From Actinomyces sp. ZJ308 (GTDB lineage: Bacteria; Actinomycetota; Actinomycetes; Actinomycetales; Actinomycetaceae), in NCBI RefSeq assembly GCF_011752065.1, contig NZ_JAAIJY010000018.1, forward strand, positions 1 to 64,000: DNA of 64,000 bases, in the 5' to 3' direction. Every line of letters starts with the position of its first letter. The first letter of the stretch is position 1. Under the pieces are notes generated by a model. The model searched no databases, was not told where the DNA came from, and saw only the letters and a list, made by a program, of their open reading frames with translations. Shown piece after piece: positions 4,088-53,170 of the stretch. Both the position numbers and the translations under genes were made by a program.

Positions 4088-4945
4088 ATGGCACGCACAC
4101 CTCGCCCCAGCGGCGCCGCTGCCGCAAGCTCCACCATCCGTCTCGTCATTTTCAGCATCATTACTCTCAGCTCCGGCTGGATCGGACTCCTCGTCAACAA
4201 CGCCCTCGGCGTCCCCCACTCCATGAACTCACTGGGTAGCCTCATCTGGATCGTGACGCCGCTCCTGGCCGGTGCCGTCATGGCTCTGAGCGACCCGTCG
4301 CTGCGCCGGCCCTACGCCGCCTCGTGGCTGCCGGGCAGGCTGCGGGCCTATGGCGTGGCGCTCGGCGTCTTCCCGCTGTCCTTCGCCTTGGCCATCGTCG
4401 TCGGTTGGGCGGCGGGGTGGCTCACTCCCGCCGGGCTGGGAGCGTTCGGGGGCGCGGTGGCCGCAGGCGTGCTGGGGACCGTGCTCAAGAACGTCGCCGA
4501 GGAGGGCGCCTGGCGCGGCTACCTGGCACCTGCGCTCATCGGCCGACAGCTGTCCGCCCCCTGGATCTGGCTCATCTCCGGAATGATCTGGAGCCTGTGG
4601 CACATCCCCTACTACGGGTGGCTCCTGGACGAGTCCCTCACCCGCTCGGTCTACGACGTCCCACCGCTCGTCTACGCCCTCATCACAGTTCCCATCATGA
4701 TCTGCTGGGCCCCCTTGTTCACCGAGCTTCGGATCCTCAGCGGCAGTATCTGGCCGGGCCTCATCGCGCACTCGATCGCGAACCTCAGCCAGATCCCCCT
4801 CAGCCTGGGCGGCCTGCCGATCGCACCGGGCCGGGAGCTGCTGGTCTCCCCGCTGGTGGGGGTCATTCCCAACGCCGTCGTCCTGGCGGCGGGCCTGGGG
4901 CTGTGGGCGCGGCGCACCGGCCGGCTCCGCCGTCGGCCTCGGTGA
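4088..4945 (+). CDS. CPBP-family intramembrane metalloprotease (CAAX/abortive-infection type)
   Basis: A polytopic membrane protein of about 285 residues with some eight hydrophobic segments. The family signature is present: E-E-G-A-W-R-G-Y-L (paired glutamates and arginine), then W-S-L-W-H-I-P-Y-Y, then G-L-I-A-H-S-I-A-N, which supply the Glu and His residues expected to hold the catalytic metal. Family members cleave prenylated proteins or peptides, process bacteriocins or give bacteriocin self-immunity; nothing here tells which. The ATG at 4088 lies 6 bases after a CATAGT -10 site and would be leaderless; an ATG at 4082 in the same frame is the alternative. It follows the padR gene closely and converges on the GTPase genes. 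Confidence 0.85.
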   Translation: MARTPRPSGAAAASSTIRLVIFSIITLSSGWIGLLVNNALGVPHSMNSLGSLIWIVTPLLAGAVMALSDPSLRRPYAASWLPGRLRAYGVALGVFPLSFALAIVVGWAAGWLTPAGLGAFGGAVAAGVLGTVLKNVAEEGAWRGYLAPALIGRQLSAPWIWLISGMIWSLWHIPYYGWLLDESLTRSVYDVPPLVYALITVPIMICWAPLFTELRILSGSIWPGLIAHSIANLSQIPLSLGGLPIAPGRELLVSPLVGVIPNAVVLAAGLGLWARRTGRLRRRPR

Positions 4946-49449: not shown

Positions 49450-50325
49450 TCAGTGGACCTCGAAACCGTAGGAACGGAAGATCGCCCGCGTGGACTCCAC
49501 GAGCTCGGGCTCCGGAGGCCTGGTGTCGCGCAGCTGGTACGTCAGTCCCAGCGCGTCCCACTTGTCGGTGCCCATCTGGTGGAAGGGCAGCACCTCAACG
49601 CGGCTGACCGAGCCCCAGCGCTCGATGATCCGGGCCACGTTGTGGACGTTCTCGGGGTCATCCGTCAGGTCCGGTACCAGGACGAACCTGGCCCAGATCT
49701 CGATCCCCTTGGCCGCCAGCCGGTCGCCGAAGGTGATCGTCGGAGCCAGGGAGCGCCCCGTCACCTTCTTGTAGGTCTCCTCGTCACCGCTCTTGACGTC
49801 GAGCAGGACCAGGTCGATGTTGTCGAGCATCTCATCGCTGGCATTGGCCCCCAGGAACCCGGAGGTGTCGATGCAGGTGTGGATGCCCATCTTCTTGGCA
49901 CCGGCCAGAAGCCTGCCCGCGAAGGCGGGTTGCATGAGGACCTCACCGCCCGACAGCGTGATTCCGCCCTTGGACGCACGGAACACTCCCCGGTAGCGGC
50001 GCATGCGGCGAAGAAGCTCCGCGGCCTCGACCGGCTCCCCGTCCTTCATGAGGAAGGTGTCGGGGTTGTGGCAGTACAGGCACCGCAGAGGGCATCCGTT
50101 GAGGAAGACGGTCATGCGGGTACCGGGACCGTCCACCGCGGTGACGAGCTCCCAGGAGTGGATCGAGCCCAGCTCACCGGCCCGCATCCGGGCCAGGCGC
50201 TCGGAGCGCTGAAGATCCGTCAGCTCCTCGAGGCCGCCGATACCCGCCCCGCGCAAGCGGGCGGCCGGGGCCAGGAAGTCCTGGTCCCGACCGCCGTCGC
50301 GCACGGTCGTCGTGGTCTGCGTCAT
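49450..50325 (-). CDS. pflA: Pyruvate formate-lyase activating enzyme
   Basis: A 291-residue radical SAM enzyme that makes the glycyl radical on pyruvate formate-lyase. The iron-sulfur motif is C-P-L-R-C-L-Y-C (C-x3-C-x2-C, Cys78, 82, 85), followed by H-N-P-D-T and the G-G-I-T-L-S-G-G-E SAM region, and K-x-x-E-D-type features of PflA. It has about 48 extra N-terminal residues before the usual start (G-S-I-H-S-W-E-L-V). It lies 23 bases after the separate glycyl-radical gene and so close to its substrate. Function requires anaerobic, reduced conditions. Confidence 0.95.
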   Translation of the reverse strand: MTQTTTTVRDGGRDQDFLAPAARLRGAGIGGLEELTDLQRSERLARMRAGELGSIHSWELVTAVDGPGTRMTVFLNGCPLRCLYCHNPDTFLMKDGEPVEAAELLRRMRRYRGVFRASKGGITLSGGEVLMQPAFAGRLLAGAKKMGIHTCIDTSGFLGANASDEMLDNIDLVLLDVKSGDEETYKKVTGRSLAPTITFGDRLAAKGIEIWARFVLVPDLTDDPENVHNVARIIERWGSVSRVEVLPFHQMGTDKWDALGLTYQLRDTRPPEPELVESTRAIFRSYGFEVH

Positions 50326-50348
50326 GACCGCTCGCCGTGCTCCCCGGC

Positions 50349-50594
50349 TCAGGCCTGGGAGTGGAAGGTGCGGTGGAGGACGTCAAGCTGCTGCTCGCGA
50401 GTCAGCTTGACGAAGTTGACGGCGTAACCGGAGACGCGAACCGTGAGGTTCGGGTAGTTCTCCGGGTGCTCCATCGCGTCCTCGAGGGTGTTGCGGTCCA
50501 GAACGTTGATGTTGGCGTGGTACAGGCCCTTAACGCCGCCATTGTCCTGACGCTGTGCCTTCATGGAGGCGAGGCGCTCTTCGTACGTGGCCAT
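50349..50594 (-). CDS. Stand-alone glycyl-radical subunit of pyruvate formate-lyase (GrcA-like)
   Basis: An 81-residue protein equal to the C-terminal domain of classical pyruvate formate-lyase: [21 protein letters not shown], then R-V-S-G-Y-A-V-N-F with the radical glycine at position 56, then L-T-R-E-Q-Q-L-D-V and the end R-T-F-H-S. It has its own ATG and a GAAAGGGG ribosome-binding site, 76 bases after the pflB stop, so this is a real gene and not a frameshift. It resembles E. coli GrcA (YfiD), the repair part for oxygen-cut enzyme, but here the main subunit has no such domain of its own, so this protein must supply it. Confidence 0.92.
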
Positions 50595-50670
50595 GGTGGC
50601 CCCTTTCTGAGGTGGTGTTATCGATGTGAGAAAAATTGCTGCGGTGCGATCAGCCGGATGGACGGCTGGA

Positions 50671-52785
50671 TCAGATCTCGGCGCAGTCGTCGGGGACGAA
50701 GCCGGCGTCGAGGATGCCCACGAGGTTGGCGACGCGCTCGTCGAGCGTGCGGCCCAGACCCTGCGGGGTGATCGTGTTGGTCAGCGAGATCCCGTCGAGG
50801 GCGTCGTTGTAGTCGAGCTTGCCGACGCTGAGCATCGAGGCGACCATGCCGTGGGTATCCATCCCGTTCTCCGGGTTGGCGCCCGGAGAGAAGGGCGTGC
50901 CCTTCTGGTGCCCCGAGGGGAAGGAGCCAGTGGCCTTGCCGTAGACGACGTTGGAGGTGATCGTCAGCACCGACTGGGTCGGGATGGCGTCCCGGTAGAA
51001 GGGCTGGGCCTTGATCTTCGACATGATGGTGTGGACAACGGTGGCGGCGATGTCGTCGGCGCGGTCGTCGTCGTTGCCGTAGATCGGGAAGTCGCCCTCG
51101 GTGATGTAGTCGACCACCAGGCCGGTCTCGTCACGCACCGGGGTCACCTTGGCGTACTTGATGGCAGCCAGGGAGTCGGCCACGATCGACAGGCCGGCGA
51201 TGCCGCAGCCCATGGTGCGCACGATGTCGGAGTCGTGCAGCGCCATCTCGATGGACTCATAGGCGTAGCGGTCGTGGCAGTAGTGGATGATGTTGAGCGC
51301 CTCGACGTAGGTGGCCACCACCCAGTCGAGCATCTTCTCGTACTTGTCCCACACCTCGTCGAAGTCGAGGGGGCCGTCGCCCTCGACGCCGGGCAGCCCG
51401 GTGACGACCTGCTTGCCGGTCATCTCGTCACGTCCACCGTTGATGGCGTAGAGCAGGGCCTTGGCCGAGTTGACGCGGGCGCCGAAGAACTGCATCTGCT
51501 TGCCCACACGCATCGGGGACACGCAGCAGGCGATGGCGGCGTCGTCGCCCCAGTGCTCGCGGATCTGCTCGTCGGCCTCGTACTGGATGGAGGAGGTCGT
51601 GATCGAGATCAGGGCGCAGAAGTCCTTGTATCCCTGCGGCAGGTTCTCGTCCCAGAAGATCGTGATGTTCGGCTCCGGGGCGGGACCGAGGTTGCGCAGC
51701 GTCTGCAGCAGGCGGAAGGAGGTCTTGGTGACCAGGGCCCGACCGTCCTCACCGAAGCCGGCGTCGGACCAGGTGGCCCAGTAGGGGTCGCCGGAGAAGA
51801 TCTGGTCGTAGTCGATGGTGCGCAGGAAGCGCGTGATGCGCAGCTTCATGACGATGTTGTCGATGAGCTCCTGGGCACGGGTCTCGTCGATGACGCCGTT
51901 GCGCAGGTCGCGCTCGAAGTAGATGTCCAGGAAGCCGGAGAGGCGACCGATGCTCATGGCGGCGCCGTCCTGGGACTTCACGGAGGCCAGGTAGGCGAAG
52001 TAGGTCCACTGGACGGCCTCGTGGGCGTTCCTGGCCGGGCCGGAGATGTCGTAGCCGTAGGAGGCGGCCATCACCTTGAGCTTCTTGAGCGCCTTGATCT
52101 GCTCGGAGTGCTCCTCGCGGTAGCGGGCCCAGTGCTCGGAGAAGGGCTTGTCCGCCACTGCGTCCTTGGCCCGCTGCTTCTCCTCGATGAGGAAGTCGAC
52201 GCCGTAGAGCGCCACCCGGCGGTAGTCGCCGATGATGCGGCCGCGGCCGTAGGCGTCGGGCAGGCCGGTGATGATGTGGCTGGAGCGCGCCGCGCGGATG
52301 CGGGGGGTGTAGATGTCGAAGACCGCGTCGTTGTGGGTCTTGCGGTAGCGGGTGAAGATCTTCTTGACCTCGGGGTCGACCTCCTTGCCCGCCTCCTTGA
52401 TGGCGGTCTCCACCATGCGCCAGCCGCCGTTGGGCATCATGGCGCGACGCAGCGGGGAGTCCGTCTGCAGGCCAACGATGACGTCATCGTCCTCGCTGAT
52501 GTACCCGGCCGGGAACGCGTCGATGTCGGCGGGGATATGGGTGTCGACGTCGAGGATGCGGACCTTGCGCTCCTCGGAGAGGTAGTCCTTCTCCAGGGTG
52601 TCCCACAGGCGCAGGGTCTTGTCCGTGGCGCCCGCGAGGAACGAGGCGTCACCGTCGTAGGGGGTGTAGTTACGCTGGATGAAGTCGCGGACGTCGATGT
52701 CCTCGGTCCACGGGCCGGTAACGAAGCCCTCCCAGGCGTCATTGCCGCTCACCGTGGTGGCAGATGTTGTGACCTCAGTGGTCAT
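50671..52785 (-). CDS. pflB: Pyruvate formate-lyase main subunit, lacking the glycyl-radical domain
   Basis: A 704-residue protein that, with coenzyme A, would split pyruvate into acetyl-CoA and formate. It aligns by eye with classical PflB from W-E-G-F-V-T-G-P-W through the catalytic [10 protein letters not shown] (Cys pair near 418-419) and Q-M-Q-F-F-G-A-R to [14 protein letters not shown]. Classical enzymes then continue into the glycyl-radical domain; this one ends with [18 protein letters not shown] and a stop. The missing part is the next gene. GAGGAGGG precedes the ATG. A short hairpin (CAGCCG/CGGCTG, 50651-50668) stands just after the stop. Confidence 0.94.
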
Positions 52786-53170
52786 CCGTGCCCTCCTCGT
52801 GTGGGTGACCGGAGGGCCACCCGGTTGTTATCGCCCTTGCGAGGCGAGGCGGCACATCGGCGCGCCGTCGATCTCAGACTAGAACTCCGAGAAGGCCTTG
52901 TGGGCCACTGGTCCCAAGAAGGGCCGGTGTGATGACTCACAGGCTGATCGACACCACCCCAAACTAGGACATAAGTCCCTATGGTTACCGCCCGGAAAGA
53001 TGGTCGTCACCCGGGAACAACACCATCCTGCCTTCGGCAATATCAGCAAACGGGAACGCGGCTCCCGGCTGAGAACCTATCGCAACGATTAGGACGGGTG
53101 TCCCAGCAACGGCCGGCTGCGATCTCGGGAACGGGTGGGCCGGACGGCTCGGAGCGATGCTGCTGCACCC
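52786..53170 (-). promoter_or_regulatory. pflB upstream region with two palindromes
   Basis: No gene in these 385 bases. Two palindromes stand out: TGTGA-TGAC-TCACA at 52928-52941, like a shortened CRP/FNR site, and AGGACATAAGTCCC at 52966-52979, which matches 12 of 14 positions of the DosR consensus GGGACTWWAGTCCC. A -10-like TAGTCT lies at 52881-52876 on the minus strand. The rest, toward dxs, holds nothing recognisable. Confidence 0.5.

What the first reader, a model, noticed from the sequence alone, without database searches (positions are those of the whole stretch)
49450..52785. Split pyruvate formate-lyase: glycyl-radical domain encoded as a separate gene
Seen: PflB (704 residues) has the Cys-Cys active site but stops just after the T-N-T-I-T-P segment, where classical enzymes continue into the glycyl-radical domain. 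The next gene encodes exactly that domain (81 residues, R-V-S-G-Y-A-V-N-F, Gly56) with its own start codon and ribosome-binding site, followed by the activase. Known: in E. coli the stand-alone GrcA only repairs full-length enzyme cut by oxygen. Inferred: here the enzyme must be assembled from two polypeptides, and the radical subunit, the part destroyed by oxygen, could be swapped without remaking the 704-residue body. That would suit an aerotolerant oral anaerobe living with changing oxygen.
Basis: partly seen in the sequence, partly recalled or inferred. Interest (0 to 1): 0.85.

Follow-up and report, generated by a model that had tools for sequence, protein, structure and literature searches.

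The report
Pyruvate formate-lyase made in two pieces
In this mouth bacterium, and in many relatives, an oxygen-sensitive fermentation enzyme that is normally one protein is encoded as a large body plus a small separate piece carrying the radical, and such a cut has arisen at least twice in evolution.

Summary
The window (near Actinomyces oris and A. naeslundii) encodes a 704-aa PflB without the glycyl-radical domain, an 81-aa protein that is that domain (Gly56), and PflA. The genome has no other PFL or PF01228 domain. It is no frameshift: 69 related split loci have gaps of -4 to 219 nt in all three frames. The cut falls at E. coli PFL 693/696, beside the published tPFL(1-695) construct, which is as active per radical as intact PFL with the domain in trans. 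In the window's family 97 of 129 PFL-bearing genomes have the shortened body and 32 a fused enzyme, never both. A second split, about 13 residues upstream, lies in another actinobacterial class (probably Coriobacteriia: 37 split, 8 fused) and one Bacillota genome; one origin is rejected (p-AU 9.7e-65). The small protein is thus best read as an obligatory subunit, although NCBIfam names it an autonomous cofactor. AlphaFold places it as in E. coli PFL, with fused homologues in the alignment. PDB 38lb already holds such a body; no paper describing the split was found. Swapping of oxygen-damaged subunits is plausible, untested. New variant of a known kind.

The parts
50671..52785 (-). pflB, 704-aa catalytic body without the glycyl-radical domain; ends [18 protein letters not shown]
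   Evidence: PF02901 3-647/647; PF01228 only 1-65/106; TIGR01255 995.1 bits, cut-off 994.2
51523..51528 (-). codons of C421 (51523-51525) and C420 (51526-51528), the active-site cysteine pair (E. coli C419/C418)
   Evidence: C-C in 90 of 90 rows with a letter there in A2 (134 rows)
50595..50670 (.). 76-nt gap between pflB stop and grcA2 start, with a small hairpin directly after the stop; pflB and grcA2 are in different frames here
50600..50606 (-). ribosome-binding-site-like AAAGGGG of grcA2
   Evidence: SD-like sequence at 68 of 69 type-A split loci (whose start rule prefers such ATGs)
50349..50594 (-). grcA2, 81-aa glycyl-radical subunit; residues 18-81 equal E. coli PFL 696-759; residues 1-17 are a new N-terminal segment ([13 protein letters not shown])
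   Evidence: (NF008341 GrcA2, 166.2 bits, cut-off 145)
50427..50429 (-). codon of Gly56, predicted radical site (E. coli Gly734)
49450..50325 (-). pflA, 291-aa radical-SAM activase
   Evidence: TIGR02493 300.9 bits, cut-off 231.75
52790..52798 (-). ribosome-binding-site-like GAGGAGGGC of pflB
   Evidence: read directly

Best explanation
This is a pyruvate formate-lyase whose single chain was cut by gene fission into two obligatory subunits. The 704-aa PflB supplies the barrel, the pyruvate and CoA sites and the thiyl cysteines. The 81-aa GrcA2 supplies the last barrel strand, the glycyl-radical loop and the C-terminal helix, and docks where the covalent domain sits in E. coli PFL. PflA, encoded next to them, installs the radical on Gly56 in the PflB-GrcA2 complex; the radical passes to the PflB cysteine pair and pyruvate is cleaved to acetyl-CoA and formate. 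GrcA2's conserved 17-residue N-terminal segment and split-specific residues on PflB helix 574-592 probably strengthen docking, which is weak in the matching E. coli construct. Shown: the gene structure, absence of any other PFL, conservation, two origins, mutual exclusion with fused PFL. Inferred: complex formation, activity, order of activation, docking role of the new segment.
Against: No protein-level evidence exists here. E. coli tPFL shows no ITC-detectable binding to YfiD, and radical yield falls 32-fold against cPFL:YfiD (0.5 vs 15.9 uM; 2.7 uM with truncYfiD). The first AlphaFold run, with split rows only, failed (pLDDT 59.0, pTM 0.56); the good model used fused homologues, so docking is partly built in. 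The formate was measured in strain DSM 43013, the genome searched is labelled NCTC 10301 (I recall that both are the type strain; not checked). In Corynebacterium phocae (L096) grcA2 and pflA remain although most of pflB is gone, so grcA2 can outlive its partner.
Confidence: 0.88

Rival explanations
1. The 81-aa protein is a spare part, as its NCBIfam name says: it repairs a full-length PFL after oxygen cleavage, and the 704-aa PflB is incidental.
For: NCBIfam names NF008341 and NF038360 'autonomous glycyl radical cofactor'. In Silvimonas terrae (L134) a full-length PFL is followed by a 66-aa copy of the domain, a true spare-part layout.
Against: No full-length PFL in the genome. Each of 129 PFL-bearing genomes of the family has one PFL match, full length in 32 and shortened in 97; the 32 carry no partial PF01228 match. 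In the other class the 37 genomes with GrcA3 have a shortened body only, the 8 with a full-length PFL have no GrcA3.
Confidence: 0.03
2. The pair is expressed as one protein by stop readthrough or ribosomal frameshifting.
For: Two of 13 genus loci (L028, L034) are in frame with one TGA between; L093 is one open frame.
Against: Gap length -4 to 219 nt, all three frames, own ATG, and a ribosome-binding-site-like sequence at 68 of 69. Slippery signals were not searched for.
Confidence: 0.02
3. Decaying, non-functional PFL.
For: pflB of C. phocae is partly lost (L096).
Against: dN/dS 0 to 0.175 for grcA2 in 18 comparisons; catalytic residues kept; A. naeslundii secretes formate; the split is kept across several families.
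Confidence: 0.02
4. Sequencing or assembly error.
For: None found for the window; for the one-ORF locus L093 an error is possible.
Against: The same split in 12 of 12 same-genus genomes and 48 of 80 named loci, and in 97 of 129 PFL-bearing family genomes by match end.
Confidence: 0.005

Closest known systems
Fused pyruvate formate-lyase PflB (E. coli 1h16/2pfl; Bifidobacterium, Sanguibacter and other fused relatives)
   Same: Whole fold, Cys-Cys pair, radical glycine motif, adjacent activase
   Different: Radical domain is on a second gene; new 17-aa N-terminus on the domain and a 4-14 aa tail on the body in type-A loci
GrcA/YfiD spare-part protein of E. coli (PDB 6owr, TIGR04365)
   Same: Stand-alone glycyl-radical domain that completes a shortened PFL
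   Different: E. coli also has full-length PFL, and YfiD is 127 aa with a disordered N-terminal half; here there is no full-length PFL, the protein is 81 aa, and it scores 84.6 against a cut-off of 170 on TIGR04365
Engineered E. coli tPFL(1-695) + truncYfiD(61-127) (PMC8683613)
   Same: Cut at nearly the same residue; both parts in trans; active once the radical is installed
   Different: Man-made, weakly binding; here natural, with extra segments at the cut
NCBIfam GrcA2 (NF008341) and GrcA3 (NF038360)
   Same: The window protein is over the GrcA2 cut-off (166.2, cut-off 145)
   Different: The names imply a free-standing repair cofactor; in 37 of 37 genomes with GrcA3 over the cut-off the only PFL match is a body without the domain. 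The models' own comment texts were not available to me
PDB 38lb (739-aa 'Formate acetyltransferase') and 38la (687 aa)
   Same: 38lb aligns nearly end to end with the type-B split body L043, tail included, and neither appears among matches of two glycyl-radical-domain queries at E 1e-3
   Different: 38lb is of the second, separately evolved type, not the Actinomyces one; organism, partner chain and paper were not found

Membership tests
Pyruvate formate-lyase type 1 (TIGR01255) | PFL barrel domain PF02901, complete | tested here: met
   3-647 of 647, 662.3 bits
Pyruvate formate-lyase type 1 (TIGR01255) | Model score over curated cut-off | tested here: met
   995.1 vs 994.2 bits, narrowly; match ends at 681 of 744
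Pyruvate formate-lyase type 1 (TIGR01255) | Adjacent active-site cysteines and conserved Trp/Arg (W336, R437, R181, R183 here) | tested here: met
   Identical in 90 of 90 rows with a letter there; E. coli numbering of the cysteines, roles of Trp/Arg recalled
Pyruvate formate-lyase type 1 (TIGR01255) | Glycyl-radical domain in the same polypeptide | tested here: not met
   Only PF01228 positions 1-65 in PflB; 65-106 in the next gene
Pyruvate formate-lyase type 1 (TIGR01255) | Activity and EPR radical | not testable with these tools
   needs protein
GrcA/YfiD spare part (TIGR04365) | Score over cut-off 170 | tested here: not met
   84.6 bits
GrcA/YfiD spare part (TIGR04365) | Co-occurs with a full-length PFL that it repairs | tested here: not met
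   none in G000; none in the family sample
GrcA2 (NF008341) | Score over cut-off 145 | tested here: met
   166.2 bits
PFL activase PflA (TIGR02493) | Score over cut-off 231.75 | tested here: met
   300.9 bits

The most novel reading that the evidence does not exclude
The split makes the radical a replaceable part. Oxygen cuts Gly56 of the 81-aa subunit, the fragment leaves the barrel, and fresh GrcA2 docks and is re-activated, so that the 704-aa body survives many oxygen exposures; fission arose at least twice because it turns a suicidal enzyme into a serviceable one.
Probability: 0.35. Interest if true: 0.85.

Novelty: new variant of a known kind. Interest (0 to 1): 0.62.

Why it matters
If right, an enzyme thought of as one chain with an emergency spare exists naturally as an obligatory two-subunit enzyme in many Actinomycetota. 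Two family models that name the small protein a free repair cofactor then mislead annotation. The natural pair is a ready system for asking how a glycyl-radical domain enters the barrel, how the activase reaches it, and whether a radical part lost to oxygen can be exchanged.

Tried and rejected
Frameshift or assembly error: rejected by gap lengths and frames in relatives. Hidden full-length PFL: none in G000; the other glycyl-radical enzyme type, NrdD, is present and unsplit (one frame of 692 aa, model positions 2-562 of 562). Fusion in G006 and G012: the tool's open-frame lengths 842 and 872 suggested one ORF, but the DNA shows a TGA between the genes. First AlphaFold run with split rows only (A1, 41 rows): pLDDT 59.0, not used. 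Foldseek against PDB never ran; only the VIA-align second look was obtained; 38la and 38lb are not among its 50 listed rows. FNR, Rex and CRP-type sites upstream of pflB: 0 of 76 upstream regions each; a TGTGA-N4-TCACA repeat in 5 of 76 was not pursued. Paper searches that could have shown a described split PFL; nothing in the listings or in the passages read describes it (one search listed 30 of 54 hits, 15 of 101, 12 of 15, 12 of 35); most subscription papers and all preprints are outside the library. Comparison of 69 split with 26 related fused PflB: 5 of the 10 most different sites lie in residues 581-601 (13 of 20,000 permutations as clustered); this ignores relatedness, the cut-off of ten was mine, and it is only a lead.

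Full report
WHAT IS THERE. On the minus strand lie pflB (52785..50671, 704 aa), a 76-nt gap, a small gene (50594..50349, 81 aa), a 23-nt gap, and pflA (50325..49450, 291 aa). PflB fills the PFL domain PF02901 (3-647 of 647) but only positions 1-65 of 106 of the Gly_radical model PF01228; the small protein fills positions 65-106. NCBIfam scores PflB just over the PFL cut-off (995.1 vs 994.2), PflA over its own, and the small protein over the cut-off of 'autonomous glycyl radical cofactor GrcA2' (166.2 vs 145) but far below that of classical GrcA (84.6 vs 170). I call it GrcA2.

WHERE THE CUT LIES. PflB F696 aligns with E. coli PFL F693 and GrcA2 residue 18 with E. coli 696. The residues C420, C421, W336, R437, R181 and R183 are identical in all 90 rows that have a letter there in a 134-row alignment (roles of Trp and Arg recalled).

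NOT AN ARTEFACT. In 13 genus loci (the window and 12 relatives) the stop-to-start gap is 55 to 116 nt and falls in all three frames. Over 69 split loci of the same type ('type A', window not counted) the gap is -4 to 219 nt, frames 0/1/2 in 24/29/16, start codon ATG in 69, a Shine-Dalgarno-like sequence in 68, length 81-84 aa (the start-picking rule preferred ATGs with such a sequence; some loci are the same genome under two names, e.g. L028 and L061). Of these, 67 of 69 carry [EDQ]R[LMVF]xxMxx(x)R in the new N-terminal segment. grcA2 dN/dS against the window is 0 to 0.175 in 18 comparisons, several within one species; 4 sequences of other length were left out.

NO OTHER PFL. The window's genome (3.28 Mb, 80 contigs, 99.98% complete) has one PF02901 place and two PF01228 places, all in this operon; its class III ribonucleotide reductase, another glycyl-radical enzyme, is a single unsplit frame. 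The nearest row of the first tree is A. oris P6N (PflB 99% identical over 649 columns; GrcA2 100%). Of 15 named genomes searched, nine have only the split pair (A. naeslundii, A. oris P6N, A. massiliensis, Arcanobacterium haemolyticum, Trueperella pyogenes, Varibaculum vaginae, Corynebacterium riegelii, Propionibacterium acidifaciens, Dermabacter hominis). Of the other six, Actinotignum schaalii has the pair and one more, full-length hit (not read); L093's genome has the one-ORF version; C. phocae has a damaged pflB; Silvimonas, the Oscillospiraceae genome and the Gastranaerophilales genome carry fused PFLs.

HOW WIDESPREAD, AND SUBUNIT OR SPARE. In the window's family, 135 of 151 genomes match PF01228. 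The PFL model TIGR01255 matches 129 of the 151 at E <= 1e-150, once in each: in 32 to positions 742-744 of 744 (fused), in 97 to positions 676-702 (shortened body; where the longest of these run on, stop codons are read through). The 32 are the same genomes whose PF01228 hits are all full length (five have a second one, also full length); the other 97 have two or more PF01228 matches (66 exactly two, 31 three or more); the remaining 6 of the 135 have a single full-length hit and no PFL match. So no genome of the sample has both a fused PFL and a shortened one, and no fused-PFL genome has a stand-alone domain. Ten of these PFL loci were read in full: 8 split, 2 fused; the extra full-length hits of G050 and G055 (L046, L051) are not PFL-like by BLAST against PflB; the other extra hits were not read. 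In E. coli, by contrast, a full-length PFL and a spare exist together. Among 80 named loci most similar to GrcA2 (chosen by similarity, so not a prevalence), 48 are split, 31 fused and 1 lacks an intact pflB. Splits are in Actinomyces, Actinotignum, Arcanobacterium, Schaalia, Trueperella, Varibaculum, Corynebacterium, Propionibacterium, Dermabacteraceae and some Cellulomonadaceae among others; fused forms in Bifidobacterium, Sanguibacter, Cellulomonas, Rarobacter, Tessaracoccus and others.

A SECOND, INDEPENDENT SPLIT. The body aligns with E. coli to about residue 680 and the small protein from 683, so this cut is about 13 residues upstream of the Actinomyces one. In that class 37 of 149 genomes have the stand-alone domain over the GrcA3 cut-off and 8 have a weaker, full-length hit, none both; TIGR01255 ends at 665-670 in exactly those 37, runs to 741-744 in exactly those 8 (7 of the 8 read, all fused), and is cut by a contig end in one more. 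One of 398 genomes of the phylum of G686 (a record titled Oscillospiraceae, Bacillota) has the same type over the cut-off (L139); a few other short frames in that list were not read. On a 69-row tree these nine rows form one supported clade nested among fused PFLs; holding all 30 split rows together is rejected (p-AU 9.7e-65), while the 21 type-A rows as one clade are not (p 0.62). At least two fissions therefore occurred, at different points. In L093 (Corynebacterium sp. Marseille-P4321), nested in the split clade, the gap is open and body plus GrcA2, with its old start Met, form one frame: a natural re-fusion or a sequencing error.

JOINT CONTROL. A transcriptome table for Fannyhessea vaginae lists grcA (-17.96) and pflB (-14.31) among the strongest down-regulated genes (PMC11979175, one passage). 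I did not check that strain's genes, so this only suggests joint control.

WHAT IS KNOWN. PDB 38lb (739 aa) aligns nearly end to end with a type-B split body including its Cys-containing tail and has no detectable radical domain; 38la (687 aa) ends at the same upstream point. Someone has thus solved at least one body that looks like a natural split form. Nine paper searches showed no paper that describes a split PFL in the listings and passages seen; the library lacks most subscription papers and all preprints.

VERDICT. Observation confirmed; two-polypeptide enzyme well supported (0.88); oxygen-driven subunit exchange an attractive, untested hypothesis (0.35). The occurrence in a probably anaerobic class argues that oxygen tolerance is not the only possible benefit.

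Noticed in passing
window 52967-52979 and 53092-53104 (-), upstream of pflB: Palindromes GGGACN4GTCC resembling mycobacterial DosR boxes (recalled), at matching offsets in many Actinomyces relatives: 20 of 76 upstream regions of split loci vs 0.35 expected from simple shuffles, 0 of 34 of fused loci. Window-wide the motif is no more frequent than chance (3 vs 3.16).
   Followed up: partly
window about 50647-50673 (-), directly after the pflB stop: Small hairpin with arms that vary in sequence between relatives, very strong in L030, L063 and L064; it could set the pflB:grcA2 ratio. Most single z-scores are weak (mononucleotide shuffles).
   Followed up: partly
L142 (G616:C3:420000-428000): A different glycyl-radical enzyme is also cut by a stop and a short gap into a 773-aa body frame and a 100-aa domain frame; comparable hits lie mostly in long frames. 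Single case.
   Followed up: no
L134 (Silvimonas terrae), 4247-4445: Full-length PFL followed by a 66-aa extra copy of the radical domain: a possible halfway stage between spare part and split.
   Followed up: no
L096 (Corynebacterium phocae): Most of pflB is missing or disrupted while grcA2 and pflA remain.
   Followed up: no
L040-L044, L057, L140, L141 PflB C-termini: Tails of type-B bodies hold clustered cysteines (ENPDCSCC, PDCGCC, VDCACEAD), function unknown.
   Followed up: no
L078 (Varibaculum vaginae): Has the split PFL, whereas a 2013 genome paper reported no evidence of PFL in V. cambriense (PMC4177395, one passage); splitting may hide the enzyme from annotation. V. cambriense itself was not checked.
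   Followed up: no
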